Origin: Procambarus clarkii
Lineage: Eukaryota; Arthropoda; Malacostraca; Decapoda; Cambaridae
Length of the DNA stretch: 64,000 bases
NCBI RefSeq assembly: GCF_040958095.1
Contig: NC_091208.1
Span: forward strand, 5,673,061 to 5,737,060
Direction: 5' to 3'
Both the position numbers and the translations under genes were made by a program. Of the stretch, positions 6,887-64,000 are shown piece after piece. The notes beneath the pieces are model-generated. The model was not told the DNA's origin and did not search any database. It saw only the letters and a list, made by a program, of their open reading frames with translations. The first letter of the stretch is position 1, and every line of letters begins with the position of its first letter.

Positions 6887-6889
6887 TAA

Positions 6890-27700: not shown

Positions 27701-28921
27701 TGAAGGCCGGGTGGGGTGTAAGCGGGACGAAGACCAGGAGAGGGTTGGAAGGTGTGTCCTGGGAGGGGTTGCTGGGGTGGGTTGTAACCAGGGGGAGGTT
27801 GAGGGATAGGAATTATTGACTGAGGGGTTGTGAGGTTGGGTGTTGTAATCAAGGAAGGTTAGGGGTTGTAGACAGAGGGGGTTTTGAGATTGGGGGTTGT
27901 ACGCAGGGAAGCCTTGAGGTTGGGGGTTGTAGACAGGAGGGTTGTCTGGTTGGGGGTTGTAGACAGAGTGATTGTTTGGTTGGGGGTTGTAGACATGGGG
28001 ATTGTGAGGTTGGGGGTTGTAGACAGTGAGGTTGAGGGTTGTAGACAGAATGATTGTTTGGTTGGGGGTTGTAGACATGGGAATTGTGAGGTTGGAGGTT
28101 GTAGACAGTGAGGTTGAGGGTTGTAAACATGGGGGTTGTGAGGTTGGGGAGTTGTAGACATGGAGGTTGTGAGGTTGGGGGTTGTAGACCGGGGGTTGTG
28201 AGGTTAGGGGTTGTAGACCAGTTGGTTGGGAGATTGGGGGTTGTAGACCAGTTGGTTGTGAGGTTGGGGGTTGTTGACCGGGGATTGTGAGGTTGGGGGT
28301 TGTAGACAGGGAGGTTGGGGGTTGTAGACCTGGGGATGTGAGGTTGGGGGTTGTAGACCTGGGGATGTGAGGTGGGGGTTGTAGACCGGGGGTTGTGAGG
28401 TTGGGGGTTGTAGACAGGAGGGTTGTCTGGTTGGGGGTTGTATACAGGGTGATTGTTAGGTTGGAGATTGTAAACATGGGGAGTTTGAGGTTGGGGGTTG
28501 TAGACATGGAGGTTGTGAGCTTGGGGGTTGTAGACTGGGGTTGTGAGGTTGGGGGTTGTAGACTGGGGGTTGTGAGGTTGGGGGTTGTAGACAGGGAGGT
28601 TGTGAGGTTGGGGGTTGTAGACTGGGGGTTGTGAGGTTGGGGGTTGTAGACAGGGAGGTTGTGAGCTTGGGGGTTGTAGACTGGGGGTTGTGAGGTTGGG
28701 GGGTTGTAGACAGGGAGGTTGTGAGCTTGGGGGTTGTAGACAGGGACGTTGTGAGGTTGGGAGTTTTAGGCATGGGGGTTGTGAGGTTGGGGGTTGTAGA
28801 TCAGGGCTTGTGTGGCTGGGGTTGTAGACAGGGAAGGTTTGAGGTTAGGGGTTGTAGAACAGGGGTTGTGAGGTTGGGGATGTTGACAGGGAAGGTTGGG
28901 GTTGGGGGTTGTAGACAGGAG
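27701..28921. repeat. 30-bp G-rich minisatellite, left block
   Basis: About 40 imperfect copies of a roughly 30-bp unit reading ttgtgaggttgggggttgta plus gacaggaggg. Copies are more varied here than in the right block, with unit-length changes, so frames break more often. The plus strand carries closely spaced G-runs. The block is cut at aggag by the Gypsy insertion. Confidence 0.95.
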
Positions 28922-29933
28922 TGTTACGGCCCTCTCGGGTCGCAACCGGGTTCTTTCTCTGATGTAAGTAGAGTTTGGGTATCCGGCCCCAAGCTAGTAG
29001 TGGCTTTCAAGGGGTGAGCTCCGTAACGCAAGTAAATTAAAGGGGAAGGGAGACAAAGGCAAAAACTTAATAATATAATTATCACCGTCACCATAAATAA
29101 TATATAGATTATCACACGGGGGAGGAATAAACACTATTATGTACAACGTAGTCTTCCTCTGAAGACTCTGGACGTTCACGGTGCTCAACGATGCTAAGCT
29201 CTTGGTCTTCTTGTGGCCTCACGATGAATCCTTCGATTCTCTTGAGTCTACCCTGGCCACAGGCCAGCCAAATCCCAATTCCACTGGGGGCACCGTCGTG
29301 GAGGCCGTCAACCACAAATCCAGCCTGTAGCTGGCAGGTTCCAATCAGCAACGCTGCGTAGGCCACTCCACGACCGATACTAGGGTTGCGAGCCCTAGTC
29401 AAGAGCCTCGTGTGATCCCACAGATCACTCTCCTCACCACAACACCCCAGTGGTTAAGCGTCTTCACCAGTCAGCCCCGGGTACGACAATCCCTCAACTG
29501 CCACGTCACAGGCAGGCTAACACCACAGTGTTCATCCGGGGGGTGACTCACAGCTGCTGCAGCAAACACGTGGAGACTCTTCGACTGCCTTGGGTAGACT
29601 GATCCAACTTCCATTACAGCAGTCCCAGGTCGACTCTGTAATCAGACACGTCATCAGTAATAGGGACACTCTAGGGCACCTCACTTACAGGCTTAGACAC
29701 AAACGCCCGACGTATCCACTCCATAGATGGCGTTGCTGTCTAAGCTCCACCTCACCAGAGGTCAGCAGCGGCTGTGTTATGAGCTGATCAGGATGGGAAA
29801 CTAGCCCTTGTGGCCAGTATATCTCGTCCTCACTAGGTGGCGTCGTCCATTTGGAGGGGGTTTCGGGAGCTGACCCACAGATGGCGCGGTCGTCACTGCT
29901 CCGTGCTCGGACGCTGGGCTCGGGTCCGTAACA
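28922..29933 (-). mobile_element. 3' LTR of the gag-only element
   Basis: Begins TGTTACGGCCCTCTCGGG and ends GGGTCCGTAACA. Nearly identical to the other LTR of the element; visible differences include gcaacc versus gcagcc near the start and ggtgctcaacg versus gggctcaacg. Confidence 0.85.
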
Positions 29934-35449: not shown

Positions 35450-38400
35450 AGGAGGGTTGTGAGGTTGGGGGTTGTAGACAGCAGGGTTGTGAGGTTGGGG
35501 GTTGTAGACAGGGAGGTTGTGAGGTTGGGGGTTGTAGACAGGAGGGTTGTGAGGTTGGGGGTTGTAGACAGGAGGGTTGTGAGGTTGGGGGTTGTAGACA
35601 AGAGGGTTGTGAGGTTGGGGTTGTAGACAGGGAGGTTGGAGGTTGTAGACAGGAGGGTTTAGAGGTTGGGGGTTGTAGACAGGGAGGTTGGGGGTTATAG
35701 ACAGGAGGGTTGTGAGGTTGGGGGTTGTAGACAGGAGGGTTGTGAGGTTGGAGGTTGTAGACAGGAGGGTTGTGAGGTTGGAGGTTGTAGACAGGAGGGT
35801 TGTGAGGTTGGGGGTTGTAGACAGGGAAGGGTGCTTGGGTAAGGAGGGGGTTTGTAGAACAGGGGTTGTGAGGTTAGGGATGTTGACAGGGAAGGTTGGG
35901 GTTGGGGGTTGTAGACAGGAGGGTTGTGAGGTTGGGGGTTGTAGACAGGAGGGTTGGGGGTTGTAGACAGGGAGGTTGTGAGGTTGGGGGTTGTAGACAG
36001 GAGGGTTGTGAGGTTGGGGGTTGTAGACAGGGAGGTTGTGAGGTTGGGGGTTGTAGACAGGGAGGTTTTGAGGTTGGGGGTTGTAGACAGGAAGGTTATG
36101 AGGTTGGAGGTTGTAGACAGGAGGGTTTTGAGGTTGGGGGTTGTAGACAGGGAGGTTGTGAGGTTGGGGGTTGTAGACAGGAGGGTTGTGAGGTTGGGGG
36201 TTGTAGACAGGAGGGCTGTGAGGTTGGGGGTTGTAGACAGGAGGGTTGTGAGGTTGGGGGTTGTAGACAGGAGGGTTGTGAGGTTGGGGGTTGTAGACAG
36301 GAGGGTTGTGAGGTTGGAGGTTGTAGACAGGAGGGTTGTGAGGTTGTAGACAGGAGGGTTGTTTAGGTTGGGGGTTGTAGACAGGAGGGTTGTGAGGTTG
36401 GGGGTTGTAGACAGGAGGGTTGTGAGGTTGGGGGTTGTAGACAGGAGGGTTGTGAGGTTGGGGGTTGTAGACAGGAGGGTTGTGAGATTGGGGGTTGTAG
36501 ACAGGGAGTTTTTGAGGTTGGGGGTTGTAGACAGGAAGGTTATGAGGTTGTAGACAGGAGGGCTTTGAGGTTGGGGGTTGTAGACAGGGAGGTTGTGAGG
36601 TTGGGGGTTGTAGACAGGAGGGTTGTGAGGTTGGGGGTTGTAGACAGGGAGATTGTGAGGTTGGGGGTTGTAGACAGGAGGGTTGTGAGGTTGGGGGTTG
36701 TAGACAGGAGGGTTGTGAGGTTGGAGGTTGTAGACAGGAGGGTTGTGAGGTTGGTGGTTGTAGACAGGAGGGTTGTGAGATTGGGGGTTGTAGACAGGAG
36801 GGTTGTGAGGTTGGGGGTTGTAGACAGGGAGGTTGTGAGGTTGGGGGTTGTAGACAGGAGGGCTGTGAGGTTGGGGGTTGTAGACAGGGAGGTTGTGAGG
36901 TTGGGGGTTGTAGACAGGAGGGTTGTGAGGTTGGGGGTTGTAGACAAGATGGTTGTGAGGTTGGGGGTTGTAGACAGGAGGGTTGGGGGTTGTAGACAGG
37001 GAGGTTGTGAGGTTGGGGGTTGTAGACAGGAGGGTTGTGAGGTTGGGGGTTGTAGACAGGGAGGTTGTGAGGTTGGGGGTTGTAGACAGGGTGGTTTTGA
37101 GGTTGGGGGTTGTAGACAGGAAGGTTATGAGGTTGGAGGTTGTAGACAGGAGGGTTTTGAGGTTGGGGGTTGTAGACAGGGAGGTTGTGAGGTTGGGGGT
37201 TGTAGACAGGAGGGTTGTGAGGTTGGGGGTTGTAGACAGGGAGGTTGTGAGGTTGGGGGTTGTAGACAGGAGGGCTGTGAGGTTGGGGGTTGTAGACAGG
37301 AGGGTTGTGAGGTTGGGGGTTGTAGACAGGAGGGTTGTGAGGTTGGGGGTTGTAGACAGGAGGGTTGTGAGGTTGGAGGTTGTAGACAGGAGGGTTGTGA
37401 GGTTGTAGACAGGAGGGTTGTGAGGTTGGGGGTTGTAGACAGGAGGGTTGTGAGGTTGTGGGTTGTAGACAGGAGGGTTGTGAGGTTGGGGGTTGTAGAC
37501 AGGAGGGTTGTGAGGTTGGGGGTTGTAGACAGGAGGGTTGTGAGGTTGGGGGTTGTAGACAGGAGGGTTGTGAGATTGGGGGTTGTAGACAGGGAGTTTT
37601 TGAGGTTGGGGGTTGTAGACAGGAAGGTTATGAGGTTGTAGACAGGAGGGCTTTGAGGTTGGGGGTTGTAGACAGGGAGGTTGTGAGGTTGGGGGTTGTA
37701 GACAGGAGGGTTGTGAGGTTGGGGGTTGTAGACAGGGAGATTGTGAGGTTGGGGGTTGTAGACAGGAGGGTTGTGAGGTTGGGGGTTGTAGACAGGAGGG
37801 TTGTGAGGTTGGGGGTTGTAGACAGGAGGGTTGTGAGGTTGGGGGTTGTAGACAGGAGGGTTGTGAGGTTGGGGGTTGTAGACAGGAGGGTTGTGAGGTT
37901 GGAGGTTGTAGACAGGAGGGTTGTGAGGTTGGGGGTTGTAGACAGGAGGGTTGTGAGGTTGGAGGTTGTAGACAGGAGGGTTGTGAGGTTGGTGGTTGTA
38001 GACAGGAGGGTTGTGAGATTGGGGGTTGTAGACAGGAGGGTTGTGAGGTTGGGGGTTGTAGACAGGGAGGTTGTGAGGTTGGGGGTTGTAGACAGGAGGG
38101 CTGTGAGGTTGGGGGTTGTAGACAGGAGGGTTGTGAGGTTGGGGGTTGTAGACAGGAGGGTTGTGAGGTTGGGGGTTGTAGACAGGAGGGTTGTGAGGTT
38201 GGAGGTTGTAGACAGGAGGGTTGTGAGGTTGTAGACAGGAGGGTTGTGAGGTTGGGGTTGTAGACAGGAGGGTTGTGAGGTTGGGGGTTGTAGACAGGAG
38301 GGTTGTGAGGTTGGGGGTTGTAGACAGGAGGGTTGTGAGATTGGGGGTTGTAGACAGGGAGTTTTTGAGGTTGGGGGTTGTAGACAGGAAGGTTATGAGG

Positions 38401-39090
38401 TTGTAGACAGGAGGGCTTTGAGGTTGGGGGTTGTAGACAGGGAGGTTGTGAGGTTGGGGGTTGTTGACAGGAGGGTTGTGAGGTTGGGGGTTGTAGACAG
38501 GGAGTTTGTGAGGTTGGGGGTTGTAGACAGGAGGGTTGTGAGGTTGGGGGTTGTAGACAGGAGGGTTGTGAGGTTGGGGGTTGTAGACAGGAGGGTTGTG
38601 AGGTTGGGGGTTGTAGACAGGAGGGTTGTGAGGTTGGGGGTTGTAGACAGGAGGGTTGTGAGGTTGGGGGTTGTAGACAGGAGGGTTGTGAGGTTGGAGG
38701 TTGTAGACAGGAGGGTTGTGAGGTTGGTGGTTGTAGACAGGAGGGTTGTGAGGTTGGGGGTTGTAGACAGGAGGGTTGTGAGGTTGGGGGTTGTAGACAG
38801 GAGGGTTGTGAGGTTGGGGGTTGTAGACAGGAGGGTTGTGAGGTTGGGGGTTGTAGACAAGGAGGTTGTGAGGTTGGGGGTTGTAGACAGGAGGGTTGTG
38901 AGGTTGGGGGTTGTAGACAGGAGGGTTGTGAGGTTGGGGGTTGTAGACAGGGAGGTTGTGAGGTTGGGGGTTGTAGACAGGGAGGTTGTGAGGTTGGGGG
39001 TTGTAGACAGGGAGGTTGTGAGGTTGGGGGTTGTAGACAGGGAGGTTGTGAGGTTGGGGGTTGTAGACAGGGAAGGGTGCTTGGGTAAGG
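35450..39090. repeat. 30-bp G-rich minisatellite, right block (about 120 copies)
   Basis: Near-perfect 30-bp units (ttgtgaggttgggggttgta plus gacaggaggg), with variants gggaggttg, ggctgtgag, ggttatgag and a 21-bp short unit (gttgtgaggttgtagacagga). The variants recur in the same order, for example gggagtttttgagg followed by ggaaggttatgagg at about 36,505, 37,591 and 38,356, so the block has a higher-order structure. Because 30 is divisible by three, frames stay open on both strands. A 1,151-codon minus frame of Thr-Ser-Gln-Pro-type decapeptides results and is not called a gene. Confidence 0.95.
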
Positions 39091-40470: not shown

Positions 40471-41156
40471 TGTGACGGTAACGCGTTGGTGTTCGGCTGT
40501 TTAAGGCTAGGGGTATGGCCTCGTCACATAGTTATAAAAAAAAATAGAAAAAACTGGAACTTCGTCTGTGGTAAGGTAAGGAGAAGACACACAAAACACA
40601 AGTAAACTTTAACAATGAAATTTTAATTACGTTAATTAAATCAAAACATGAATAAAATGCACAAACAAATTCTTATAATAAAATCAATCAATCAAAATAA
40701 TAAGAATAATTAGATGACACAATGAAAAGTTACGTTAAGACAAAATAACAAGAAGTGCAATATACAAGTAAATGGGAGGTGCTGGAATATTGGCTTTAAG
40801 CCACCACTTCTCTCAGTACACGCTAGCGTCTAGCTGGGAGGAGTGGTGACAACGAGAGCACTGAACATTCTGAGGTATGAGGGTGGGGCGACCCCAGACA
40901 TCAAGTAGTATGGGGGGGCGAGTGCAGGTGCAGCCAGACCGGCGACCAATCAGCGGAGCCGGTAGCGATCAACATGTAGTTTGGTGGTTTGAGTCCGAAC
41001 AGGTGGCTGGCTGCATATGTTTTGCTCACCCTGGCAAGCCTTGCTGGTGTTGTTGTTGTTGTTGGACATGTCTTCCATAGTCGTTTTATATAATTTCAAC
41101 GACGTGTTTGTGGAGGGAAGAGCAGGCTCAATCTCTTGAAGGAGATTATTGTCACA
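40471..41156 (-). mobile_element. 3' LTR of the reverse-transcriptase-less Gypsy element
   Basis: Begins TGTGACGGTAACGCG and ends GATTATTGTCACA. 686 bp, same length as its partner. The C-terminal end of the long ORF reads into it as far as 40,950. Confidence 0.9.
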
Positions 41157-44100
41157 ACTCTCCCCCGAAGCCTGCGGTTCTGGAAGAAGTACGTCGTTAT
41201 GTGGTGGAGTAATGGATGGAGTCGCTTCTACTTCATAAACTCTGGAGAGATCATGGGCTAAGATGTTGTCAGACTCTTGGTATAGCGTGTCTCCAGGTTG
41301 AATTTCTGCAGTTAGCAAGCCCATAGTAGAAGACGTTGAGATGAGAAGGGGGCGTGCTGCAGGAGGTGTAGGGTGGTGTGGTCCGTATTGATGGTGGACC
41401 GAGCACTTTTCAGGTGTGAAGTGAAGTGCTGAAGCTTCAGGATGAGGAAGAGTAGTTCCTTGCCAATTGTTCCGTCGTTCCTTGTAGCAGTAGTCGCTGA
41501 CAGGTGTATTCTTCTCGCCTCGTTGCTGCATCACGACACCACCATCGTCGGTACCATTGGCGTCGACATGGAGGATGAAGGGCTTATCTGACGAGGTGAG
41601 AGTGGAATTAGAAGAGGGCAAAGGAGCACGATTATTATCCTGAAAGCATTTGGGAAGATCATTAAGGATTTCGGAATTAGAAAGCGCTGACTCCTTGTCA
41701 GTGCTTTCGGGAGGAGAAGCTGGGAAGGTCTCACTGTGGATGTAGGGTTCTGTGAATGTGGAATAGTTAGTCAAGACAGTGGGAGGAGTACCATTATATT
41801 GCTTCAGGAGGTTGACGTGGCACAGCTGGGTCTTCCGCCGCCTATCTGGAGTCTCTATGACGTAAGTGTTGTTGCCTCTGCACTCTTTGACGCAGTAGGG
41901 TCCTGAAAATCTGTTTTGTAAAGGTGAACCTGGGATAGGGAAATAGGCAAGGACGAAGTCTCCCGGCTTGAATTTTCTTACTTTGCTGGTCTGGTCGTAA
42001 TGAGTCTTCATTCTCACCTGGGCTTTCAATAGATTATCATGGGCAAAGCGGTGGACTCTCTCTAGAATGTGTTGAAGGTTTTGAAGAAACTGGGGCACAT
42101 TCTGATGCTCACTGAAGGTGGCATCTCTGAGAGAGTCTTTGAAAGCCTTAAGGGGAGTACGGCACTTACGGCCGTAGAGCATCTCATAAGGAGATACTCC
42201 TAGGGACTCATTGGGGAGACTTCTGAAAATACACATTATTAGGTCAATCTGCTTATCCCAATCCTTTGAGGTTTCACTACAAAACTTTTTCAAGAGTGCT
42301 TTGATGGTCTGATGACTACGTTCAAGAGAACCCTGTGAAGCAGGATGATAGGGGCTGGACAATACCTGTTTGATGTTGAACTCCTCCAGTGTCCTTTTGA
42401 AGAGATCACTGGTGAAGTTGGTGCCACAGTCACTTTGAATCTCCCTGGGAAATCCGTATTGAGTGAAGATCTTCAATAGATGTTTTATAACCGTAGCAGC
42501 CGTGATGTTCTTCACTGGAACTGCTATGGGAAATCTGGTGGTAGGACACAGGATGGTTAGGATGTAGGCGTTACCTGAACTGGTTCGAGGTAAAGGACCA
42601 ACACAGTCTATTATGAGTCTGTGGAAAGGTTCCGCAGGCACCTGTATGGGAATCAGTGGTGCTCTGGGAATGGAGACGTTCGGTTTGCCTGCCATCTGAC
42701 ATGTATGACACTGTTTTACGTACTGTTTGACGTTATTTACCATACCTGGCCAGTAGTAGTCTTGACGAATCCCATGGTAAGTCTTGTTGAAGCCGTAGTG
42801 GGAGAATGCTCCGTGGGCCAGGTGTAGAATAGTGGGCCGCAGGCTGGTGGGAATCACAAGTTGTTCGATGTTGGCCCAATCGTCCTCCTCCTTCAGTTTA
42901 CTGGGTCTATATCTGCGGTAGAGCAAGTCGTTCTCTAGGAAGAACCCAGGAATACTGTCGGGTTGAGTCTCAGCCTGGAAAAACAATGGTGTTAAAGTAA
43001 GATCTTCCCTCTGCAACTTACGGAACTCCAACTTGGTCAGATGCGGGGGGAGTTTCTGAGGGTCTTGAGGGACAGCGGTAGCAGTAGAGTCAGCTGGCTG
43101 TGGACGTGCGGCTTGTGCACGGGTGGTCACGAGAACCGGAGGAGAAACTTCATCACTCTCTTGAACCTCTGCTGGAACATACTCAAGAATAGGGTTTATT
43201 GGCACAGAGTTACACACCTGGGGTTTGTCCATGACGATCAGGTTGGTCGGTTGCAGGTCTTCTGCCAAGTCGTTGCCTAGGAGAAGTTGCACTCCAGGCA
43301 TGGGAAAAGGCTTTTCCCTGACGGCGACTTGGACTTCCCCGTTCACGTAGGGACAATCCAGGTGGACTCTGGCGAGAGGGTATGGAGTGGTAGCAGTGAG
43401 GTCAGTGATGAAGACTGTTTCCCCGGTGTAGACTATGTTGGGCACAGCCGACTTCAAGATGATCGATTGTAGAGCCGCTGTGTCCCTCAAGATCTTCAAT
43501 TTGAAACGTCCCTCCGGAGTTGAACCGTTGGCAGAGACAGTTCCAGTATACAGGTGGTTACTGAAAAGAGAAAGATCATTAACATCAACACCAACATTCA
43601 TCACAGGCTTACCGGACTTAGGAGGAGTTGGTTTGGGTCGTTGTTGGTCAGTGGTTCCCTTGTATTGAGACTTACCACACTTGTCTATGGTATGTCCATA
43701 GAGTCTACAATACTTGCAGTACAGTTGTGAACCAGCTTGATCGGGGCTCACCTTCTCGTAACTGTACCACGACTTCTTACTGGAGGATGGTTCGGGTGTC
43801 AGCCGGTGGATGAGGCTGTAAGTGTCAGCCGACTTAGCACACTTCAGGTAGTCGGTTTCTTCTTTATCTGCTAAGTAGAGGCGGACAGGAGGTGGCACAC
43901 GTCTCAAGAATTCTTCAACAAGCATCAGGTTGACGAGTTCTGTAAAAGTAGAGACATGTGCTGCTTCCAGCCATTTCATGAAATACCTCCGTTTCGTGTT
44001 AGCAAACTCAAGGAAGGTAGTGGTACTTGCCTTCAGGTGGTCACGGAATTTCCTTCTATAACTTTCTGTGGAAAGTAGGTAGGCGTCCAACACTGCTTGT

Positions 44101-44936
44101 TTCAGAGTGTAGTAGTCATTCTCAGACGCCAAAGTACTGAGTGTGACTGCAGCTCTACCTGTAAGATGGACTCTGAGAAGTGTGGCCCATTGGTCGACAG
44201 GCCAACTGAGTTGATTAGCAAGGGTTTCAAAGGTGGTGAAAAACACATCAACTTCTGCTTCTACAAAAGATGGCATTAACTTACTTGCATGTGATATATT
44301 AAAACTGACGGGAAGATTGGCAGTAGCTTGCTGGCGTTGAGTGAAGTGTGAAGTTTCCAAGGCGATTTCGCGTTGACGACACTCTAGAGCCAGAGTCGCT
44401 TGTTGCTTGTCATGTTCGCGTTGTATTTCCAACTCGCGTTGTTTTGTTTCAAGCTGTACTCTCTCACGTTCATGGAGCAAGGCGACCTCACGTTCGTGGA
44501 GGGCGAGTCCACGTTCGTGTTCTTCTCTCCTCAAAGCAGCTTCGCGTTCTTGTTCGTCTCTCCTCAAAGCAGCTTCACGTTCTTGTTCGTCTCTCCTCAA
44601 AGCAGCTTCGCGTTCTCTGAGGGTGATTTCTCGTTCTTGTTCTTCCCTCCGTATGGCAGCTGTTCGTTCTTCAATCTTGGCCAGCTCTAGTTTGAGTTTC
44701 ATTGTCGCCAAATCAGTTTTATCTGTAATATAGTAAGTTTCATGAGTTTCAGAGTCTATCTTACCTTGCTCTAAATAGTAATCCAGCAACAGGTTGTGTA
44801 GGTCATTTTTGTTGGCTTGGTAGGGAACTTCTAGTTGATACTCATGTGCAAGAGTTTGTAATTCAGTCCTCTTGGCACGACTTAAAGTCCCTATTTCACC
44901 TGCTGGATTTGCACGGAAAGTTTGGAGACGAAACAT
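40950..44936 (-). CDS. Gag-protease-integrase polyprotein lacking reverse transcriptase
   Basis: The frame is open from 45,035; I choose the ATG at 44,936 (context CACCATG), giving 1,328 residues. In residues counted from the upstream Met: 34-100 N-terminal helical domain, 110-225 Glu/Arg coiled coil, 240-410 Gag capsid-like, CCHC knuckle at 440-453, aspartic protease with DTA at 518-520 and LLLGND at 584-589, integrase zinc domain (H741, H746, C776, C779), catalytic core D810, D869, E905 (35 residues between the last two), and GPY-type C-terminal module at about 1045. Only about 80 residues of linker separate protease from integrase where reverse transcriptase and RNase H should be. The frame is uninterrupted, so the architecture is not decay in this copy. 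Confidence 0.9.
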   Translation of the reverse strand: MFRLQTFRANPAGEIGTLSRAKRTELQTLAHEYQLEVPYQANKNDLHNLLLDYYLEQGKIDSETHETYYITDKTDLATMKLKLELAKIEERTAAIRREEQEREITLREREAALRRDEQEREAALRRDEQEREAALRREEHERGLALHEREVALLHERERVQLETKQRELEIQREHDKQQATLALECRQREIALETSHFTQRQQATANLPVSFNISHASKLMPSFVEAEVDVFFTTFETLANQLSWPVDQWATLLRVHLTGRAAVTLSTLASENDYYTLKQAVLDAYLLSTESYRRKFRDHLKASTTTFLEFANTKRRYFMKWLEAAHVSTFTELVNLMLVEEFLRRVPPPVRLYLADKEETDYLKCAKSADTYSLIHRLTPEPSSSKKSWYSYEKVSPDQAGSQLYCKYCRLYGHTIDKCGKSQYKGTTDQQRPKPTPPKSGKPVMNVGVDVNDLSLFSNHLYTGTVSANGSTPEGRFKLKILRDTAALQSIILKSAVPNIVYTGETVFITDLTATTPYPLARVHLDCPYVNGEVQVAVREKPFPMPGVQLLLGNDLAEDLQPTNLIVMDKPQVCNSVPINPILEYVPAEVQESDEVSPPVLVTTRAQAARPQPADSTATAVPQDPQKLPPHLTKLEFRKLQREDLTLTPLFFQAETQPDSIPGFFLENDLLYRRYRPSKLKEEDDWANIEQLVIPTSLRPTILHLAHGAFSHYGFNKTYHGIRQDYYWPGMVNNVKQYVKQCHTCQMAGKPNVSIPRAPLIPIQVPAEPFHRLIIDCVGPLPRTSSGNAYILTILCPTTRFPIAVPVKNITAATVIKHLLKIFTQYGFPREIQSDCGTNFTSDLFKRTLEEFNIKQVLSSPYHPASQGSLERSHQTIKALLKKFCSETSKDWDKQIDLIMCIFRSLPNESLGVSPYEMLYGRKCRTPLKAFKDSLRDATFSEHQNVPQFLQNLQHILERVHRFAHDNLLKAQVRMKTHYDQTSKVRKFKPGDFVLAYFPIPGSPLQNRFSGPYCVKECRGNNTYVIETPDRRRKTQLCHVNLLKQYNGTPPTVLTNYSTFTEPYIHSETFPASPPESTDKESALSNSEILNDLPKCFQDNNRAPLPSSNSTLTSSDKPFILHVDANGTDDGGVVMQQRGEKNTPVSDYCYKERRNNWQGTTLPHPEASALHFTPEKCSVHHQYGPHHPTPPAARPLLISTSSTMGLLTAEIQPGDTLYQESDNILAHDLSRVYEVEATPSITPPHNDVLLPEPQASGESCDNNLLQEIEPALPSTNTSLKLYKTTMEDMSNNNNNTSKACQGEQNICSQPPVRTQTTKLHVDRYRLR

Positions 44937-45036
44937 GGTGAAATTAGCAAATAAAGGTACACGAATATTCAATAGTGAAATGTCAGAAACAGGACAACGT
45001 GGCAACTGGTACCTATCCTGTGTGATCTTTAACAAT

Positions 45037-55774: not shown

Positions 55775-56670
55775 ATTTTCTTTCTTTATTATGCACCCCA
55801 TAATACACATCCCGTGGGCGGTGGTGTAAAGGATTACAGAGGCACATAATCGGTTCAGGAACTGAACCCTCTAGTTCGTTTAGCTAAGCAAATAACAATC
55901 TTTTGACGCTAGTTACAAAATTATTAATGTACACATACTTATGCATACATGTACATATTCATACGTATACATATATACAAACATATACATATTTAATCAC
56001 CACCACAAATACACACATCAGTAATCTTTTGTGTCACAAATGATTCAACAAGAGGCTCACAACAGTCACTATACAAGGCACTTTACATTTATGGTGAGTC
56101 ACACAGTTACTAGTCTTGCTCCACACCCACCCAACTGGGCGGCAGCTTTACAGTCATGTGCTCCACACCCACCCAACTGGGCGGCAGCTTTACAGTCATG
56201 TGCTCCACACCCACCCAACTGGGCGGCAGCTTTACAGTCATGTGCTCCACACCCACCCAACTGGGCGGCAGCTTTACAGTCATGCGCTCCACACCCACCC
56301 AACTGGGCGGCAGCTTTACAGTCATGTGCTGCACACCCACCCAACTGGGCGGCAGCTTTACAGTCATGTGCTCCACACCCACCCAACTGGGCGGCAGCTT
56401 TACAGTCATGTGCTCCACACCCACCCAACTGGGCGGCAGCTTTACAGTCATGTGCTCCACACCCACCCAACTGGGCGGCTGCTTTACAGTCATGTGCTCC
56501 ACACCCACCCAACTGGGCGGCTGCTTTACAGTCATGTGCTCCACACCCACCCAACTGGGCGGCAGCTTTACAGTCATGTGCTCCACACCCACCCAACTGG
56601 GCGGCAGCTTTACAGTCATGTGCTCCACACCCACCCAACTGGGCGGCAGCTTTACAGTCATGTGTATGCA
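55775..56670 (-). mobile_element. 3' UTR of a non-LTR retrotransposon, expanded by a 42-bp minisatellite
   Basis: Read on the minus strand, it follows the ORF ending at 56,671 and ends in GCATAATAAAGAAAGAAAA at about 55,775. That end combines a poly(A) signal and a short A-rich tail. Most of it is the 42-bp tandem block described separately. Confidence 0.75.
56119..56663. repeat. 42-bp minisatellite, about 13 copies
   Basis: Near-perfect units (ctccacacccacccaactgg, gcggcagctttacagtcatg, tg) with few substitutions (gctgct, gcgctc, gctgca). 42 is divisible by three, so five frames stay open and give fake proteins of 175-234 residues. Confidence 0.95.
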
Positions 56671-57399: not shown

Positions 57400-57575
57400 A
57401 CGTGTATGTATGTATGTATGTATGTATGTATGTATGTATGTATGTATGTATGTATGTATGTATGTATGTATGTATGTATGTATGTATGCATGAATGGATA
57501 GATGGATGTATGTATGTACGCATGCATGCATGTATGTATGCATGTATGCATGTATGTATGTATGTATGTATGTAA
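57400..57575. repeat. (TGTA)n tetranucleotide microsatellite
   Basis: About 90 bp of perfect TGTA repeats, then imperfect TGCA/TGGA variants to 57,575. Open frames in it are artefacts. Confidence 0.95.
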
Positions 57576-57589
57576 GTAGTATATTCTGT

Positions 57590-57900
57590 GCCAGATAGGC
57601 GCACTTAACAAACAATGGGGGGTACTTATCAGACAATGGAATCAGAGGCGGGGAGCCAGATAGGCCCACTTATCGGACAAAAGGAATCAGAAGCGGGGTG
57701 ACAGATAGACCCACCTCAAATTGTAGTCTACGGTGTGCCCCCACCACATGTCACTTACACTGTGTCATCTCCGTTTAAACACTACACTCATTATAAATAT
57801 ATAGGACTAATTAAGGATATATATATATATATTCGAACAAGTCTGAATGGCCCCTCCCTTATATGGGAGTATTTAAGGAGTATTAAATTATAAATCCTCC
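57590..57900. other. Flank of the viral block: short degenerate repeat and AT-rich sequence
   Basis: 57,590-57,715 has about three copies of a roughly 60-bp unit (ccagataggcccacttatc, gacaa, ggaatcagaagcgggg). 57,835-57,855 (cgaacaagtctgaatggccc) is close to a stretch of the 260-bp unit at 3,353-3,373. The left end of the viral element should lie between here and 57,930; I could not see its terminal repeat. Confidence 0.4.
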
Positions 57901-57934
57901 CCCTCCCCCAAAGGTTAAAAAAAACATCAAATAA

Positions 57935-57952
57935 TTTATTAAATGCTTTATT
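57935..57952 (-). terminator. Poly(A) signals downstream of the spliced viral gene
   Basis: On the minus strand two AATAAA hexamers (57,947-57,952 and 57,935-57,940) lie 100-120 nt after the stop at 58,057. Confidence 0.6.
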
Positions 57953-58056
57953 AGGTAAAAACTACAAAATGTATAAGTAATTATGTTAGTTAATAATTGT
58001 AGTTTACAGAGTGCTCTTGCCATATTTCACTTACTACAGCTCTATCCCTCCCCTCC

Positions 58057-58632
58057 CTATCCCACACCCCCATCCTCGTCTGAGTAGAATTGTGACGATT
58101 CCTCATCAGTGAAGAGTGGGGGAAGGTCTTGAGCCCCATCCCCCCCCTCTCTTGGGGGGGTGGGGTGAGTTGGGTGGACACCTTTTGGCTGAGTTTCCTC
58201 CTCTCTCTCATCGGAAGTGTTCTGGAAAGAGATGGGGGAAATAATTTATAGTGATTAAAGGTTTTTTATATAATTATATATTTTATTAGAAAAATATTAT
58301 ATTTTTCTCTAAGAACAACTAGTACATACCTCTCCCCCTGCAGGAGCGGCCTTGTGTCCTTTACAGCAGGCATCGTCTATTAGACTACGTAACAGCATCT
58401 TGTTTGGGGCAGACCCCCCACGTAGAATTACTACTCTACAAATGTGGACGGGTCCCAAGAACTGCACTGGAGAAAAACATAAGAGGTGAAATAGAGGATA
58501 TACAAACTTTTTTTTTATTGAGGGAAATAAAACATAAAATAAATCTATTAGCAGAAAGATAGGGTAATACTAACCAGGTCCTTCAAGGACTTCAATCTTC
58601 CCCGCAGGTGTTTTTTGAGAGACACCTCCCAT
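58057..58632 (-). CDS. Three-exon small viral gene, function unknown
   Basis: Minus strand. Exon 1 58,632-58,575, exon 2 58,466-58,330, exon 3 58,221-58,057. Both introns are 108 nt, start GTTAGT and GTATGT, end in pyrimidine-rich TTTTTCTCCAG and CATCTCTTTCCAG, and bring in-frame stops if unspliced (TAG at once in intron 1). Joined coding length is 360 nt, 119 residues plus stop. A TATAAAA lies 51 nt upstream of the ATG. The predicted protein has a hydrophobic/Cys-containing middle (residues about 20-60) and an acidic, Pro/Ser/Glu/Asp-rich C-terminus like an activation or interaction tail. At residues 34-38 it carries LRGGS, a possible adenain-type cleavage site. I recognise no family. Position next to the protease suggests an accessory or early regulatory gene; that is inference. 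Confidence 0.7.
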
Positions 58633-58682
58633 TTCGTAGGAGGAAGACAGTCTTCTGAGGGGGGTGGGTGGGGGAGAGGGGT

Positions 58683-58689
58683 TTTTATA
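58683..58689 (-). promoter_or_regulatory. TATA box of the three-exon gene
   Basis: TATAAAA on the minus strand, between the protease stop (58,724) and the start at 58,632, followed by a C/T-rich stretch. It gives the small gene its own promoter. Confidence 0.65.
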
Positions 58690-58723
58690 GGAGGCTACAC
58701 CCCTTGTTAGGTAGGTTGCCTAG

Positions 58724-59290
58724 CTAACAAAAATATTCTCTACACCACCTATAAGAACCAACCCCTATACCTCTACAAAATGTCCTAACACAATGATGTT
58801 TCATAGGAAAATATCGTCTTGCATAAGCAAGGGCTCGTTTATCATTTAATTTTAAAGTAATGCTTGAAAATACATTATGTAAGTAGTGTACTGTTGAAGT
58901 CAACCCCAGGTGGCTCACCCTATGAACGAACATGACGCAATACAGTCCACAGGCGAGAGTAAAATCACTCTGGAGTCTGTAGCGCATTCCAAACACCTTT
59001 CTTATTTTGTTAGTTTTAATAAATCCTTGAAAATGACGTCCGTAAGTAACTGGCGATATTGCATAACTATCAAAAAAAAACATCCGATGATTAACTTTAT
59101 CAACATAAATTCCTACCCAATGTCCCATAGTGATTCTGCTATTTGAAGGTAAAATATTAGTTATGAAAACAATAGGTTTTCTTGAAGATATATTTAAATG
59201 TTCTATCTCATCAGCATTATAACAACCTAGGTAGAGTGTTCGATCCCCTAGATTATTTTTTAAATTAATATTTATATCATAACAATTCAT
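58724..59290 (-). CDS. PRO: Adenain-like virion maturation cysteine protease
   Basis: 188 residues. The catalytic set of adenovirus-type proteases (family C5, Ulp1 fold) is visible in order: His57 in GHWVGIYVD, Asp74 in FFFDSYA, Gln107 in RLQSDF, Cys114 in ACGLYC. In adenoviruses and Polinton/adintovirus elements this enzyme cleaves capsid and core precursors inside the particle after (M/I/L)xGG-x or similar. Size is close to the usual 200 residues. It starts 9 nt after the capsid gene stop. No breaks. A possible substrate site, MRGG-A, is present in the neighbouring core protein. Confidence 0.9.
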   Translation of the reverse strand: MNCYDININLKNNLGDRTLYLGCYNADEIEHLNISSRKPIVFITNILPSNSRITMGHWVGIYVDKVNHRMFFFDSYAISPVTYGRHFQGFIKTNKIRKVFGMRYRLQSDFTLACGLYCVMFVHRVSHLGLTSTVHYLHNVFSSITLKLNDKRALAYARRYFPMKHHCVRTFCRGIGVGSYRWCREYFC

Positions 59291-59299
59291 TATGTTTTT

Positions 59300-60658
59300 T
59301 TACGCTCGCACGTCACACAGAACAGTTCTCTGCCCATCGATGGATAGTACCCCGGTCGTTTCCCCAAACAGTAAAACCAGCCTGTTATATGTAACACCCC
59401 CACCAAATTCAAGCTCCATACGCAAGTTGCCAGATTTCTCCACAGGGAGGGAATCTTTTGTTTGAATGGTGGTTAAGTCAAAGGCGAATATTGATCTTCC
59501 CTTATTAAAAGAGTCATAGGCCAGTAGTGAATCACGCTCTAAGCCTAATGTCTTCAAAGTTTCATAATAAAGGCGGGAATAATGGTTATCGAAATCGCCA
59601 CCAATTCGGTAAATTGCATTATTGTTCAAATACATAGCAATACTTTTCAGCTTTGCATTTTCAAAATATAATCCATTACCTTGGTGAAGACCGGCGAAAT
59701 AATTCATTGGAACGATTATCATGTATATCTTGTGTGGAATTACTTGCGCCCATGGTTGATCAATTAAGAGACTAGTTTGATTCCCTGCTAGAACATATGT
59801 TTTAGAAATGGTTCTATTGAAAGTATAGGTTATGGGGTCGGGGGATGCTAACAGTGAGCTGTTTAAGGCCAGGTAAGCACTTGGGTAGGGGAACACCCGC
59901 GTCACCCATAACTTAGCATAATCCATATGCAGGCGATATTTAGAGCCATCGTCCACGCTTGTATTTAGGACCCAGGCATGGGGGGAGAGCTCCAATCTTA
60001 GTCGCATATCTATATTATCTAATATGTATTGGTCTAGGGATGATATATCCAATAGGAGGGGGAAACACATCGACAAACCTTTACTTTTTAAATCACCCAT
60101 AAATTTTTTATCCTTGGCGGTTGCTCCAGTAAAATAAGTATTTGTAAACTCATTAGTGATTATACCGTCGTCATCTCTCCAGTCCCTACGAAAGCCTCCA
60201 ATTCTCCCCAAGGAAGACATTTTTGATGGAGGCATGGAGGTAATTAATTTAATAAACGACCAATAATTAAAATTAGTATTTGTTTCAACTACCTGCTCTC
60301 CTAAAAACACCTGAACACCTTTAAACATGGTATTTGACAACCCATTCACAAATTCCACATGGTCATCCTCTTCCAATTTTGTGGTATCGTCATCTTTCGT
60401 TAAAGATACCTTAAAATCTATAACAATATTAGCTAGATCTAAGAAGGCGCCCTGGGTTCCAGGGATGCGGAATTCTAAGTAATTATCCCGCAAACGTTGA
60501 TTAATGGGGAGGTTGACAGGTAGAACTTCTATTTGCTGCGTAGAGGCAATTGAACTCTCCACATTACGTATTCTGTTACTTCTAGGAAATTGGTCAATAA
60601 TACTGGAACTATAATATTCTAGTGGTATTTTGACCCCAGCTCCGCTAGGCTCCCCCAT
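59300..60658 (-). CDS. MCP: Major capsid protein, Polinton/adintovirus type (double jelly-roll)
   Basis: 452 residues, uninterrupted. Features I associate with the Polinton major capsid (hexon-like) family: an N-terminal stretch after LEYYSSS; a beta-rich first domain (LDLANIVIDFKV, GVQVFLGEQVVETNTNFNYW); a Tyr/Asn-rich middle; and a C-terminal block with FAFDLT, NLRMELEFG and SIDGQRTVL that fits the family's terminal strands and end. In this family the protein trimerises into pseudo-hexagonal capsomers. It starts 29 nt after the core protein stop. It is somewhat shorter than many Polinton capsids. Assignment is by pattern recognition; a structure prediction or HMM search would settle it. Confidence 0.8.
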   Translation of the reverse strand: MGEPSGAGVKIPLEYYSSSIIDQFPRSNRIRNVESSIASTQQIEVLPVNLPINQRLRDNYLEFRIPGTQGAFLDLANIVIDFKVSLTKDDDTTKLEEDDHVEFVNGLSNTMFKGVQVFLGEQVVETNTNFNYWSFIKLITSMPPSKMSSLGRIGGFRRDWRDDDGIITNEFTNTYFTGATAKDKKFMGDLKSKGLSMCFPLLLDISSLDQYILDNIDMRLRLELSPHAWVLNTSVDDGSKYRLHMDYAKLWVTRVFPYPSAYLALNSSLLASPDPITYTFNRTISKTYVLAGNQTSLLIDQPWAQVIPHKIYMIIVPMNYFAGLHQGNGLYFENAKLKSIAMYLNNNAIYRIGGDFDNHYSRLYYETLKTLGLERDSLLAYDSFNKGRSIFAFDLTTIQTKDSLPVEKSGNLRMELEFGGGVTYNRLVLLFGETTGVLSIDGQRTVLCDVRA

Positions 60659-60687
60659 GATCCCTCCGAAAGTTGAAGTATGACTGC

Positions 60688-61113
60688 TTACGTTAGCGAA
60701 AACACATCATTTTTATACCCAAGGCCTCGTTTACATTTTTTATTTTTATTTTTTCGCCTAGAGAGTCTTTTAATTTTACCTCCCATTACCAATTTCTTTC
60801 CCACACTCTTAAGAGCATCAATACCGTGAGTTCTCAGAGCACTTTTTACATCCCGTTTACCACTGCTTAAATCACCAAGGACATTTTTCCCAAAATCGAT
60901 GGCGCTAGGTGTTACAGCTTTCATGAAAAATGGTATGGCCCGTCGAGCAATACCAGCCAAGGTCCCAAAGAAACCTCCACCAGATCTGAGATAAGGCGCT
61001 TGGAATGTGCGTATGTCATTCATCGCCCCCCCTCTCATCCCATGTCTCCTAGGGGGAGGTGCGAATATCTCCCCGAACTCCCCCTGGGAGGGTGGGTGGA
61101 ACGGTATTCGCAT
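60688..61113 (-). CDS. pVI/pX-like minor core protein
   Basis: 141 residues, pI clearly basic. Pro/Arg-rich N-terminus, a Gly and hydrophobic segment (GGGFFGTLAGIARRAIPFF, about 45-64) that could form an amphipathic membrane-active helix, an Ala/Gly/Lys middle, and a Lys/Arg-rich tail (112-130). This is the layout of adenovirus pVI/pX-like proteins that Polinton elements encode beside the capsid genes. Residues 26-30, MRGGA, match an adenain-type cleavage site and would remove the N-terminal peptide. A TATA box lies about 50 nt upstream. Confidence 0.75.
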   Translation of the reverse strand: MRIPFHPPSQGEFGEIFAPPPRRHGMRGGAMNDIRTFQAPYLRSGGGFFGTLAGIARRAIPFFMKAVTPSAIDFGKNVLGDLSSGKRDVKSALRTHGIDALKSVGKKLVMGGKIKRLSRRKNKNKKCKRGLGYKNDVFSLT

Positions 61114-61159
61114 TCTGAGGTCTCTTCCTATAATAACCTAAGTCGAGGCTAAACACTTC

Positions 61160-61170
61160 TTTATATATAT
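61160..61170 (-). promoter_or_regulatory. TATA box upstream of the core-capsid-protease unit
   Basis: TATATATAA on the minus strand directly after the penton-like gene stop (61,175), about 50 nt before the core protein ATG. It could drive core, capsid and protease as one transcription unit, since the gaps between them are 29 and 9 nt. Confidence 0.6.
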
Positions 61171-61174
61171 GTTG

Positions 61175-62040
61175 CTATACCTTAGGGCGGATATGTAAGA
61201 CCGCCGTAACCGACCTCCCATCTTCAAAACTAACCATTCGACCAAACTGATCTGTTATTTTAATGCTAACTTTCTCCAACGTGTTAGTGTTTAATGTTTT
61301 GTACACTAGAGGGTGAGCCCCTCTAGAATATGAGTCATGATAATTGATTGCATCTAAGATATTTACAATCTGCCCTCCGTATCGTTCAGGCTCGATGACG
61401 TCACTATAAATGAGTAAATAGTCACAACCCCCGTCAATGTCTGGGGGCGATAAGGCCACAGTCTTGGAGGCTGACGTAATGTCATCTGTTTTTGCTCGAT
61501 AAATGGTGTATTTGCGACTGCTGTCAAAACCAAGTACATTAGCTATTCTGTGTTTAAATTGAAAGCTGAGAGAATTTAATGAGCCAGTACTTCCACTGTT
61601 AAGAGTTGAAGCTAGTAATACCCTCTCTACAGATTGGTCATAGGTGAGGATTGGTTCTTTATCTGAGAAGTATATTTTGAAATCATCCCTAAAGCTAAGC
61701 TGCATGTCGGTTGTTATTTGTCGACTAACCACGTCTGTAATGAATTTGATGTTTCTTGATAATATGTTGGTTTTTGGGTGGAAGGTGTATATGAGGTGTT
61801 CTGGACTCTTAGAAAGAGTTCCACGTTTAAAAGTGGCATAGATATCTATACCAGAGTCCTCCTCATCTTTGATGATGGCATTAATTCGCCTGGGGAGAGT
61901 ATGTTGACTAAAGCCACTTCATGTTTAATGGAAGGGTTTAAATGTAGTGTTGGGATGGTGTTTGTAAATGCTGAACTCGTGTTGTTGTAAATATCTCCTT
62001 GATCGAGACTGGTAAGATATATGTAATGTTCTTCCCCCAT
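61175..62040 (-). pseudogene. Penton-like minor capsid protein gene with one frameshift
   Basis: Two minus-strand frames: N-terminal part from ATG 62,040 (ACAATGG context; an upstream in-frame ATG at 62,112 is less likely) to a stop at 61,846, and C-terminal part open from before 61,890 down to 61,175. The break lies near 61,880-61,905 beside a C4 run, and a single lost base would explain it. The N-terminal part has the EEHYIYLTS and NTTSSAFTN words, and the C-terminal part the SDVIEPERYGG and VTAVLHIRP words, that I associate with the Polinton penton-type protein, which fills the fivefold vertices. The frameshift could be real inactivation or a homopolymer read error. Confidence 0.7.
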
Positions 62041-62121
62041 TGTCCCGTTATGTACTGAAAGGCCAATATACAGGGGATGGGTTTTTGTAAGAAGGGAGAA
62101 AATAAACAACATAACTTATAT

Positions 62122-62132
62122 TTTATTTTATT
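62122..62132 (-). terminator. Poly(A) signals after the 330-residue gene
   Basis: Overlapping AATAAA hexamers (62,127-62,132 and 62,122-62,127) on the minus strand lie about 170 nt after the stop at 62,302 and just before the penton-like gene. Confidence 0.55.
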
Positions 62133-62301
62133 AAACTACTTAAAGAACTACAACAGGTGAAGATTCCCACACATTTTTTAAGAATAGTGATTAACCACTC
62201 CCCCCTCGCTACTACTACTGCTGGCTGCTGCTACCTCCACTGCTGCTTCCGCCGGGGCTACTGTAGCTGCCACTACCTCATCTTCTTTACTGGAGTGGTG
62301 G

Positions 62302-63294
62302 TTACAGCTTTCGTTGTTTTTTCGGGGGGGAGGATAACAGGAATATTTCCTGCGACTCTCCATCGAGGATGGAGTCGATACGGCGATTCGCCCCCGTTTC
62401 AAAGTCGAGGAGTGGCTCAATCCTCCGTTTAACTGAGGTTGACGTTGTAGGGGGCGGTGGAGAGGTGGCGGTGGAGGTGGAGCCGTATTCCTGAGAGTGT
62501 TTCTTCTTCCTGGGTGTGGCTGGTGGTGCTGGAGGAGTAGAACGAGAAGAGGTTCTTGGTGTGGTACCACCCTCTCCCACCACGGCGTCGAGCGTTATAG
62601 TAAGATTATCAGCACTTGGGTCGTCGAACGGGAGGGGTGCCACTGATGGGGTAACAGCGGCAGGTCGTTTGAGGATGACTAATTCTTTGTTGACTTTGGC
62701 GAGTTCTTGATGAAGAGACAGCAGCATGGGTCCAATGTCCTTGTGCCAGTTGACCATACCGTCGCGGGAAGCCCCTAAGCCGTAGGGTACCACTAGTCGA
62801 GTCATGGTTGGGGTTGCCGCCATTAAATTGCCCACCTTTGTTAGGCTCATCTTGAGCCAGTATCTGCGATTCTTGGCGGTATCCAGGGTGACATTAGGGA
62901 CGTAGTGAGTGTCGGCGGAAGTCTGCACTTGTTCCTGGGCTATTGGGTTTGACTCGAAGGGGGCTCCTGCCCCGAATGCAGAAATCAACCCCACAAAAGT
63001 GGGCCTGAAGTAAAGGACGGGCTCCTCTATGAGATCTTGTCCGTCGGAGGGGAGAGGGGCTATCTTCACAACAATGTCCCCCGGGGTAGACCGACAACGA
63101 ATTATTGCCCTATTGGCATTACCCAGTCCTTCACGTTCCACACGGGCGTAGGAGAACGTCTTCCAGATGACGGAAGCCAGTCCATAGGGTCGCACAACAG
63201 CAGCTGCCAGATCGTAGATGATGACGTCCCCCACCCCAAAGGCGTGGGAGTCAGTGATATCGTCGCTGACGGTCTTGATACAAGCCAGAGACAT
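62302..63294 (-). CDS. Viral protein of unknown function with nuclear signals
   Basis: 330 residues, uninterrupted, ATG in strong context (CACCATGTC) and TATTTAAA 75 nt upstream. Residues 1-180 look globular (alternating beta-type segments, conserved-looking YFRPTFVG and RRYWLKMSLTK). 183-210 is a Leu/Lys helix that could form a coiled coil. 212-300 is Pro/Ser/Thr-rich and disordered, with PRKKK at 261-265 and VKRRIEP at 288-294. The C-terminus ends PPKKQRKL. Three basic clusters suggest nuclear import. The coding sequence is GC-richer than the AT-rich capsid genes next to it. I recognise no family; a DNA-binding or replication accessory role is only a guess. Confidence 0.7.
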   Translation of the reverse strand: MSLACIKTVSDDITDSHAFGVGDVIIYDLAAAVVRPYGLASVIWKTFSYARVEREGLGNANRAIIRCRSTPGDIVVKIAPLPSDGQDLIEEPVLYFRPTFVGLISAFGAGAPFESNPIAQEQVQTSADTHYVPNVTLDTAKNRRYWLKMSLTKVGNLMAATPTMTRLVVPYGLGASRDGMVNWHKDIGPMLLSLHQELAKVNKELVILKRPAAVTPSVAPLPFDDPSADNLTITLDAVVGEGGTTPRTSSRSTPPAPPATPRKKKHSQEYGSTSTATSPPPPTTSTSVKRRIEPLLDFETGANRRIDSILDGESQEIFLLSSPPKKQRKL

Positions 63295-63368
63295 GGTGAG
63301 AGGGCGGGTGTGGGGAGCTCGTCGTCGTCAACTGTAGTATAGTGTTCCAGGAGCGGCGGTGGGCGACC

Positions 63369-63376
63369 TTTAAATA
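63369..63376 (-). promoter_or_regulatory. TATA box of the 330-residue gene
   Basis: TATTTAAA on the minus strand in a GC-rich surround, followed by a possible initiator (cactatactacagttg) before the start codon. Confidence 0.65.
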
Positions 63377-63426
63377 CACCTGTGACCCACCTGGGGGGAG
63401 AGGGGTGAAGGGGTGTGGGGTAGAGA

Positions 63427-63773
63427 TCACCTTATGTGCCCATAGACACTCCGCCCAGACTCAAAGGCTGTAATCATATCACGATGTTGGAAGGTTAATT
63501 TTTCCATCTGCCAAATCTCTGTCTGGATCTCCGGAGATGAATACTCCTCATACCTTTTCACCGTTTCTCCAAATGACTTAAAAAACCGTTCTGGGGGAGC
63601 ACTCAACACAAGACGGTCATAACAATCCCATAAGGCATATATCAATCTACTTTTGTGTTCGACAAACTTGTAGTAACGTTGAGTAGCAACCAAACGCTTC
63701 AATAGGGGAGATTTTTCTCCCTCCTCTACTGCCGCAGGGGGGGGTAGAAGCTCTCTCCATGGTGGATACACAA
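63427..63773 (-). CDS. Viral ORF without an ATG, probably a 3' exon
   Basis: About 115 codons are open between a TAA at 63,790-63,792 and the stop at 63,427. The only in-frame Met codons are in the last quarter, and the first candidate start would be GTG at 63,771. A good acceptor-like sequence (CGACTTTATATTCAG) ends at 63,774, exactly where the open frame would have to begin after splicing. An out-of-frame ATG in strong context (63,760) opens only 37 codons. The product is basic and aromatic (RYYKFVEHKSRLIYALWDCY). No family recognised. See the partial ORF to the right for a possible first exon. Confidence 0.55.
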
Positions 63774-63817
63774 CTGAATATAAAGTCGTTTAAGATGTGC
63801 TTCATATAGGTTTTTTT

Positions 63818-64000
63818 TCAATACGGTTCCCAATGGGGTCTCCTATGGATACCCCTACCCCCTTTTAACTGTGATCTTGCGCGAGAATTACGTATAAAGG
63901 ATGGGTCTACACCAGCCACCTTCAGTAAAATCCTTACATCTGCCTTGTCACCCGTCCTAAATTGTCCCTTAGTAAAGGCTATAGTTTTAATTATATCTAA
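63818..64000 (-). CDS. Partial viral ORF or exon running off the right edge
   Basis: The minus strand is open from the window edge for 60 codons to TGA at 63,818, with no Met, so the start lies beyond 64,000. It is basic (RTGDKADVRILLK, RRPHWEPY) and unlike anything I recognise. Phase-1 donor-like sites GGG|GTAGGG (exon end 63,859) and GGG|GTATCC (63,853) would splice in frame to the acceptor at 63,774 and fuse it to the ORF at 63,427. If unspliced it ends on its own stop. Confidence 0.5.
   Translation of the reverse strand, partial: LDIIKTIAFTKGQFRTGDKADVRILLKVAGVDPSFIRNSRARSQLKGGRGIHRRPHWEPY

What the first reader, a model, noticed from the sequence alone, without database searches (positions are those of the whole stretch)
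57900..64000. Endogenous Polinton/adintovirus-like gene block with open capsid, core and protease genes
Seven minus-strand genes in a compact block include an adenain-type protease with all four catalytic residues, a double-jelly-roll-type capsid protein, a basic core protein and a penton-like gene. Three of the four structural genes are full length with no stop. In repeat-rich DNA full of decayed elements this stands out and suggests a recent or still mobile virus-transposon. Small accessory genes that I cannot match to any family sit at both ends.
Basis: partly seen in the sequence, partly recalled or inferred. Interest (0 to 1): 0.88.

Follow-up and report, generated by a model that had tools for sequence, protein, structure and literature searches.

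The report
Young, high-copy crayfish Polinton virus-transposon
A stretch of DNA from what is probably a crayfish holds one end of a Polinton, a virus-like mobile element whose capsid gene occurs in at least 93 near-identical copies in this genome and shows the mark of natural selection, so the element likely spread recently, and it probably did so with the help of virus particles.

Summary
Observation confirmed, interpretation largely right. The minus-strand block encodes an adenain-type protease, a 452-aa capsid protein with a predicted double jelly roll, a basic core protein, a penton gene (frameshifted in this copy) and unknown accessory ORFs.

The element begins at 57,575. Sister copies show inverted ends starting AGTAGT; 5 of 15 paired copies are 15.46-15.49 kb long, the rest 10.6-27.6 kb, and 4 of 4 examined have perfect 6-bp target duplications. 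The 4.03-Gb genome holds at least 93 capsid copies (73 without a stop) and 185 matches to the terminus. The window's capsid gene is 0.15% from its nearest copies.

In 53 copies, capsid, protease and core changed under purifying selection on internal branches (omega 0.12-0.18) and more freely on terminal ones (0.47-0.97). This fits spread through working virions followed by decay, but virions were not shown.

It is a new member of the Polintons (Mavericks); adintovirus membership is open. New are the decapod capsid lineage, the many young copies and a predicted zinc-ribbon leader on the polymerase.

The parts
57569..57574 (.). Candidate left half of the 6-bp target-site duplication (last bases before the element, in a TGTA microsatellite)
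   Evidence: Position inferred from the terminus; perfect 6-bp duplications seen in 4 of 4 sister copies examined; the right half for this copy was not seen
57575..57762 (.). Left terminus and inverted repeat, beginning AGTAGT
   Evidence: BLASTN homology with 17 of 20 sister copies starts at 57553-57575; 16 junctions read, 15 distinct flanks; terminal 39-mer and subterminal 47-mer found in inverted pairs elsewhere in the genome
58724..59290 (-). Adenain-type cysteine protease, 188 aa
   Evidence: Pfam Peptidase_C5 E=3.2e-4, 20.9 bits against a cut-off of 21.3; weak adenain alignment over Q107 and C114; passes the intactness test in 35 of 53 copies; 2 relatives of 17 candidates
59300..60658 (-). 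Major capsid protein, predicted double jelly roll, 452 aa
60688..61113 (-). Basic core protein (position of PW in vertebrate Mavericks), 141 aa, 29 K+R against 8 D+E
   Evidence: passes the intactness test in 40 of 53 copies, internal-branch omega 0.12; no family above its cut-off. Equivalence with PW is by position only
61175..61732 (-). Penton (minor capsid) gene, C-terminal piece; frame broken in this copy
   Evidence: 10 relatives of the gene as it stands in another copy, 867 candidates; alignment A2; predicted fold of a relative matches mavirus and adenovirus pentons
61846..62112 (-). Penton gene, N-terminal piece, 88 aa; a 312-aa frame over the gene is open in 12 of 20 other copies
62302..63294 (-). 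Accessory ORF of 330 aa, no match to any family
63427..63771 (-). Accessory ORF of 114 aa, no family above its cut-off
63818..64000 (-). C-terminal end of a 300-aa basic ORF that continues past the window (L009:1818-2720), no family match

Best explanation
The block is one end of a Polinton (Maverick), an integrating virus-like element that encodes its own DNA polymerase, integrase, packaging ATPase, protease and predicted capsid proteins, and that likely spreads by packaging its DNA into virions and reinserting it into the germ line. Inferred cycle: the family B polymerase copies the linear DNA (protein priming is assumed from relatives); the ATPase fills a capsid of double-jelly-roll and penton proteins, matured by the adenain-type protease with the basic core protein; the chromodomain integrase then inserts the DNA, which makes the 6-bp target duplications. 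Shown here: the genes and their order, the left end, inverted ends and target duplications in sister copies, the young high-copy family, and purifying selection on capsid, protease and core. Inferred: virion formation, reinfection and present-day activity. This copy is unlikely to be self-sufficient, because its penton gene is frameshifted.
For: Integrase with rve (E=2.5e-9) and Chromo (E=1.1e-8), ATPase (Pox_A32, E=3.3e-9) and DNA_pol_B_2 (E=9.1e-16) on the same contig. Capsid fold and penton fold of a relative. (AGT)2 ends, inverted repeats and 6-bp duplications, as reported for vertebrate Mavericks (PMC8097293, passages read). The order integrase, minor capsid protein, small protein, major capsid protein, protease matches vertebrate Mavericks, with accessory ORFs in between. 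At least 93 capsid copies and 185 terminus matches. Internal against terminal branches: capsid 60 S/21 N against 117 S/149 N, Fisher p=2e-6; protease p=0.0017; core p=4e-5.
Against: No virion, transcript or insertion polymorphism was available. The window's penton gene is broken. The right end of the window's own copy was not seen, and no clear inverted copy of the left end appeared in the readable flank. The protease match is 0.4 bits under Pfam's cut-off. Capsid intactness is inflated, because copies were ranked by protein score. Conserved capsid genes could also serve movement inside cells. Protease and core were mapped on the capsid tree, so recombination among copies could disturb the branch counts. 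Four scans of viral contigs found no relative.
Confidence: 0.85

Rival explanations
1. A DNA transposon that moves only inside cells by its polymerase and integrase; the capsid genes are passengers or serve a role without virions.
For: No virion had been observed for Mavericks (abstract of PMC8097293). Many copies lie in one genome, and some lie close together on one contig.
Against: Capsid, protease and core show internal-branch omega of 0.12-0.18 with higher omega on terminal branches, which is not expected of passengers.
Confidence: 0.2
2. A member of the adintoviruses (Adintoviridae) in the strict sense.
For: Integrase with a C-terminal chromodomain, a feature given for adintoviruses in PMC11071296 (section 16 read).
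Against: Of 27 capsid relatives the two that bear a name are crayfish proteins. In the viral fold library the hit named Adintovirus is 11% identical. Reference hexons were not at hand.
Confidence: 0.25
3. A dead or domesticated old endogenous virus.
For: The penton gene of this copy is frameshifted; 18 of 53 protease copies failed the intactness test, one of them only because the alignment missed the first base.
Against: The capsid gene is 0.15% from its nearest copies, flanks differ from copy to copy, and many copies have open genes.
Confidence: 0.03
4. Contamination by, or misassembly of, a free virus.
For: None found.
Against: Copies sit on contigs of many megabases in unrelated flanking DNA, with target duplications where examined.
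Confidence: 0.01

Closest known systems
Vertebrate Mavericks (Barreat and Katzourakis 2021, PMC8097293; passages read)
   Same: Module order integrase, minor capsid, PW, major capsid, protease; (AGT)2 ends; 6-bp target duplications; inverted repeats; similar size (mean 16.9 kb there); purifying selection on core genes
   Different: Here the ATPase lies on the integrase strand, not with the polymerase; [quoted passage not shown] at least four accessory ORFs lie between integrase and penton. That paper gives at most 38 intact elements per genome; here 73 of 93 capsid ORFs are stop-free, but whole-element intactness was not counted
Polintons with jelly-roll capsid genes (Krupovic et al. 2014, PMC4028283; passages read)
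   Same: Major and minor capsid genes, packaging ATPase and adenovirus-type protease together
   Different: A decapod lineage with a young, high-copy family
Adintoviruses (definition read in PMC11071296, section 16; Starrett et al. 2021 not held)
   Same: rve integrase with a C-terminal chromodomain; a penton with adenovirus-type fold
   Different: Hexon likeness by BLASTP and polymerase OTU domain not tested; the capsid fold scores higher against PBCV-1, iridovirus and faustovirus capsid chains than against adenovirus hexon
Mavirus virophage
   Same: Capsid and penton folds among the matches
   Different: Element in an animal genome; about 10% identity only

Membership tests
Polinton (Maverick) | Family B DNA polymerase | tested here: met
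   DNA_pol_B_2 E=9.1e-16; YFDFES and YSDTDS strings present (their reading as exonuclease and palm motifs is recalled); its end lies in a stretch that is withheld
Polinton (Maverick) | Protein priming (terminal-protein domain) of the polymerase | not tested
   First 500 residues from the listed start gave no Pfam match; no structure was predicted
Polinton (Maverick) | Retroviral-type integrase | tested here: met
   rve and Chromo, both above cut-off
Polinton (Maverick) | Packaging ATPase | tested here: met
   Pox_A32 E=3.3e-9, above its cut-off
Polinton (Maverick) | Adenain-type protease | tested here: met
   Peptidase_C5 E=3.2e-4, 0.4 bits below the curated cut-off; Q107 and C114 align with adenain in a weak match
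Polinton (Maverick) | Double-jelly-roll major capsid protein | tested here: met
Polinton (Maverick) | Single-jelly-roll minor capsid protein (penton) | tested here: met
Polinton (Maverick) | Terminal inverted repeats, AG-starting ends and 6-bp target duplications | tested here: met
   In sister copies: 15 inverted pairs under 30 kb among the listed termini, 4 of 4 examined with a perfect 6-bp duplication. The window copy's right end was not seen
Adintovirus | rve integrase with C-terminal chromodomain | tested here: met
   definition
Adintovirus | Hexon recognisable by BLASTP to adintovirus hexons | tested here: inconclusive
Adintovirus | Polymerase with N-terminal OTU-like domain | not tested
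   No Pfam match in the first 500 residues from the listed start; no fold predicted

The most novel reading that the evidence does not exclude
A living Polinton: this decapod lineage is still making virions and reinserting into the crayfish germ line, and its polymerase is made from a spliced transcript that adds two zinc-ribbon modules at its start, a form of Polinton replicase not seen before.
Probability: 0.3. Interest if true: 0.78.

Novelty: new member of a known kind. Interest (0 to 1): 0.5.

Why it matters
Whether Polintons form infectious particles is an open question; the abstract of PMC8097293 says that Maverick particles had not been observed. A probable crayfish genome with at least 93 near-identical capsid copies, many with open genes, in a group that can be kept in the laboratory, makes particle searches and insertion-polymorphism tests practical. 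The branch test (constrained while spreading, looser after landing) is independent evidence from an invertebrate that structural genes mattered for propagation.

Tried and rejected
Viral contigs: four scans (capsid alone, capsid alignment, penton alignment, integrase) gave no relative. PHROGs (7 proteins of the block), NCBIfam (9 proteins) and PDB sequence searches added no family for the accessory proteins (the best PDB hit of the 117-aa protein, a ribosomal L22 at E=0.011, was judged chance). A profile of the penton family found nothing in the PDB by sequence; only the fold did. The top hit of the capsid model in the viral fold library was an uncharacterized bracovirus protein at 19% identity and TM 0.35, not followed. 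Old dead element: rejected on copy divergence. Literature; no listed title or abstract start described a Polinton of this kind in Procambarus. PMC7859515 has one Polinton line (0.09) in a repeat table for another crayfish (passage). In PMC10454600 'Maverick' occurs once, in the introduction, and 'Polinton' never (passages). Passages of PMC11071308 and PMC6431247 were seen. PMC8502044, PMC5898198 and PMC10748475 were not held; one search failed on a search word.
Full report

Beyond the window. The window is C59:5,673,061-5,737,060 of a 4.03-Gb assembly. The next 8 kb hold, on the minus strand, the rest of a 300-aa basic ORF, a 117-aa basic ORF, an integrase with chromodomain (371 aa) and a packaging ATPase (218 aa), and then, on the plus strand, a family B polymerase open for at least 1,143 codons from its listed start. 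The two sets of genes point away from each other. The last part of the polymerase lies in a stretch that is withheld, and this was left so.

Ends. BLASTN homology to sister copies starts at 57,553-57,575 in 17 of 20. Sixteen junctions were read, with 15 distinct flanks; two share a flank and look like one duplicated locus. The end begins AGTAGT, the commonest motif of vertebrate Mavericks (PMC8097293). The terminal 39-mer, with up to three mismatches, occurs 99 times forward and 86 times reverse, with 0 for the reversed control. Only part of these 185 places is listed. Among the listed places I read 15 inverted pairs less than 30 kb apart: C21, C25, C37, C44 and C13 at 15,463-15,487 bp, and ten others from 10.6 to 27.6 kb. 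In five of the pairs (C18, C21, C25, C37, C44) a subterminal 47-mer is inverted too, so the repeats span at least about 188 bp. At the four pairs whose ends were fetched, the six bases on both sides are identical (TATATA, TTACTC, CACCAT, TAACTT); TATATA lies in a TA repeat and is weak by itself. The first 47-50 bases of the two ends are identical in three pairs and differ at 4 of 52 positions, compared without gaps, in C37. For the window's copy the right end was not seen.

Copies and age. The protein search scored 93 of 3,039 candidates, all 93 matched, and 73 of 93 have no stop (my count from the listing). Ranking by protein score favours intact copies, so this share is an upper one, and 93 is a lower bound of the number. 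Of 53 copies at hand (40 of the 93 were not fetched), the capsid passes the intactness test in 46, the core in 40 and the protease in 35. Median pairwise capsid divergence is 1.6%, the maximum is 8.2%, and the window is 0.15% from three copies. A 481-base piece at the start of the polymerase gene has at least 40 copies at 98-100% (40 of 394 candidates scored), so the amplification was not of the capsid gene alone. No date is given, because no rate was at hand.

Selection. Changes were counted by parsimony on the capsid tree with a transition-weighted neutral expectation. Capsid: internal 60 silent and 21 replacement (omega about 0.13), terminal 117 and 149 (0.47). Protease: 43 and 22 (0.18), terminal 45 and 65 (0.49). 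Core: 18 and 6 (0.12), terminal 24 and 63 (0.97). Fisher p is 2e-6, 0.0017 and 4e-5. The two root branches were kept apart (omega 0.18, 0.32 and 0.35). Without that separation and with unweighted sites the result was similar (internal 0.12, 0.17, 0.21; terminal 0.36, 0.38, 0.80; p 1e-7, 0.004, 1e-4). Of 16 changes involving a stop codon, 15 lie on terminal branches. The structural genes were thus constrained while the element spread and less so after each copy landed. Limits: capsid copies were ascertained by score, the tree is from the capsid gene only, and internal nodes of a young burst are poorly resolved.

How it likely works. PMC8097293 argues that constraint on the virion genes of Mavericks points to spread through particles and reinfection (passage). 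I take this as the most likely mode, with movement inside cells as the main rival. Virions, reinfection and present activity are inferred, not shown.

Known or new. The Polinton features that were tested are met, the protease narrowly; protein priming was not tested. Adintovirus in the strict sense stays open. Differences from vertebrate Mavericks are the ATPase on the integrase strand, genes pointing outward, several accessory ORFs between integrase and penton, and two predicted exons before the polymerase, each with a cysteine-rich zinc-ribbon-like pattern, whose GT-AG introns and phases fit the polymerase frame (Pfam matches weak, best C1_2 at E=0.0014, below cut-off). Splicing is predicted only. 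The searches listed under Tried and rejected showed no earlier description in Procambarus, but the library is open-access only.

Noticed in passing
L009:5963-6104 and L009:6238-6393 (right of the window): Two cysteine-rich, zinc-ribbon-like predicted exons upstream of the polymerase ORF, with GT-AG introns and matching phase; weak Pfam zinc matches.
   Followed up: partly
C51, four capsid copies between 29,800,378 and 29,838,240: Four capsid copies in one orientation at 11.8-12.8 kb spacing, closer than the 15.46-kb element length; the one fetched (L028) keeps the left end and capsid but lacks the 5' part of the core gene. Looks like a tandem duplication of a truncated copy.
   Followed up: partly
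Terminus pairs on C6, C11, C14, C16, C18, C36: Besides the 15.46-kb group, seven pairs lie 19.1-22.6 kb apart; the extra 4-7 kb may be an insertion or a longer form.
   Followed up: no
window 15609-16403 (-) and 16454-17305 (+): Two nearly identical ORFs (264 and 283 aa) in inverted arrangement, 50 bases apart; the YIGKT pattern recalls the GIY-YIG domain of Penelope-like elements (recalled, not tested).
   Followed up: no
window 40950-45035 (-) and 5548-9063 (+): A 1,361-aa open gag-pol-like ORF that looks like an LTR retrotransposon, and a broken near-copy of it (family recalled, not tested).
   Followed up: no
window 35450-39071: A 30-base minisatellite with about 123 copies and extreme GC skew, with long ORFs on both strands, and a related array at 27856-28925.
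   Followed up: no
window 56117-56664: A 42-base minisatellite, 13 copies at 98% matches, open in several frames on both strands, just left of the element.
   Followed up: no
window 57403-57582; C21 copy (L015, L062, L063): The window's copy sits at the edge of a TGTA microsatellite and the C21 copy in a TA repeat.
   Followed up: no
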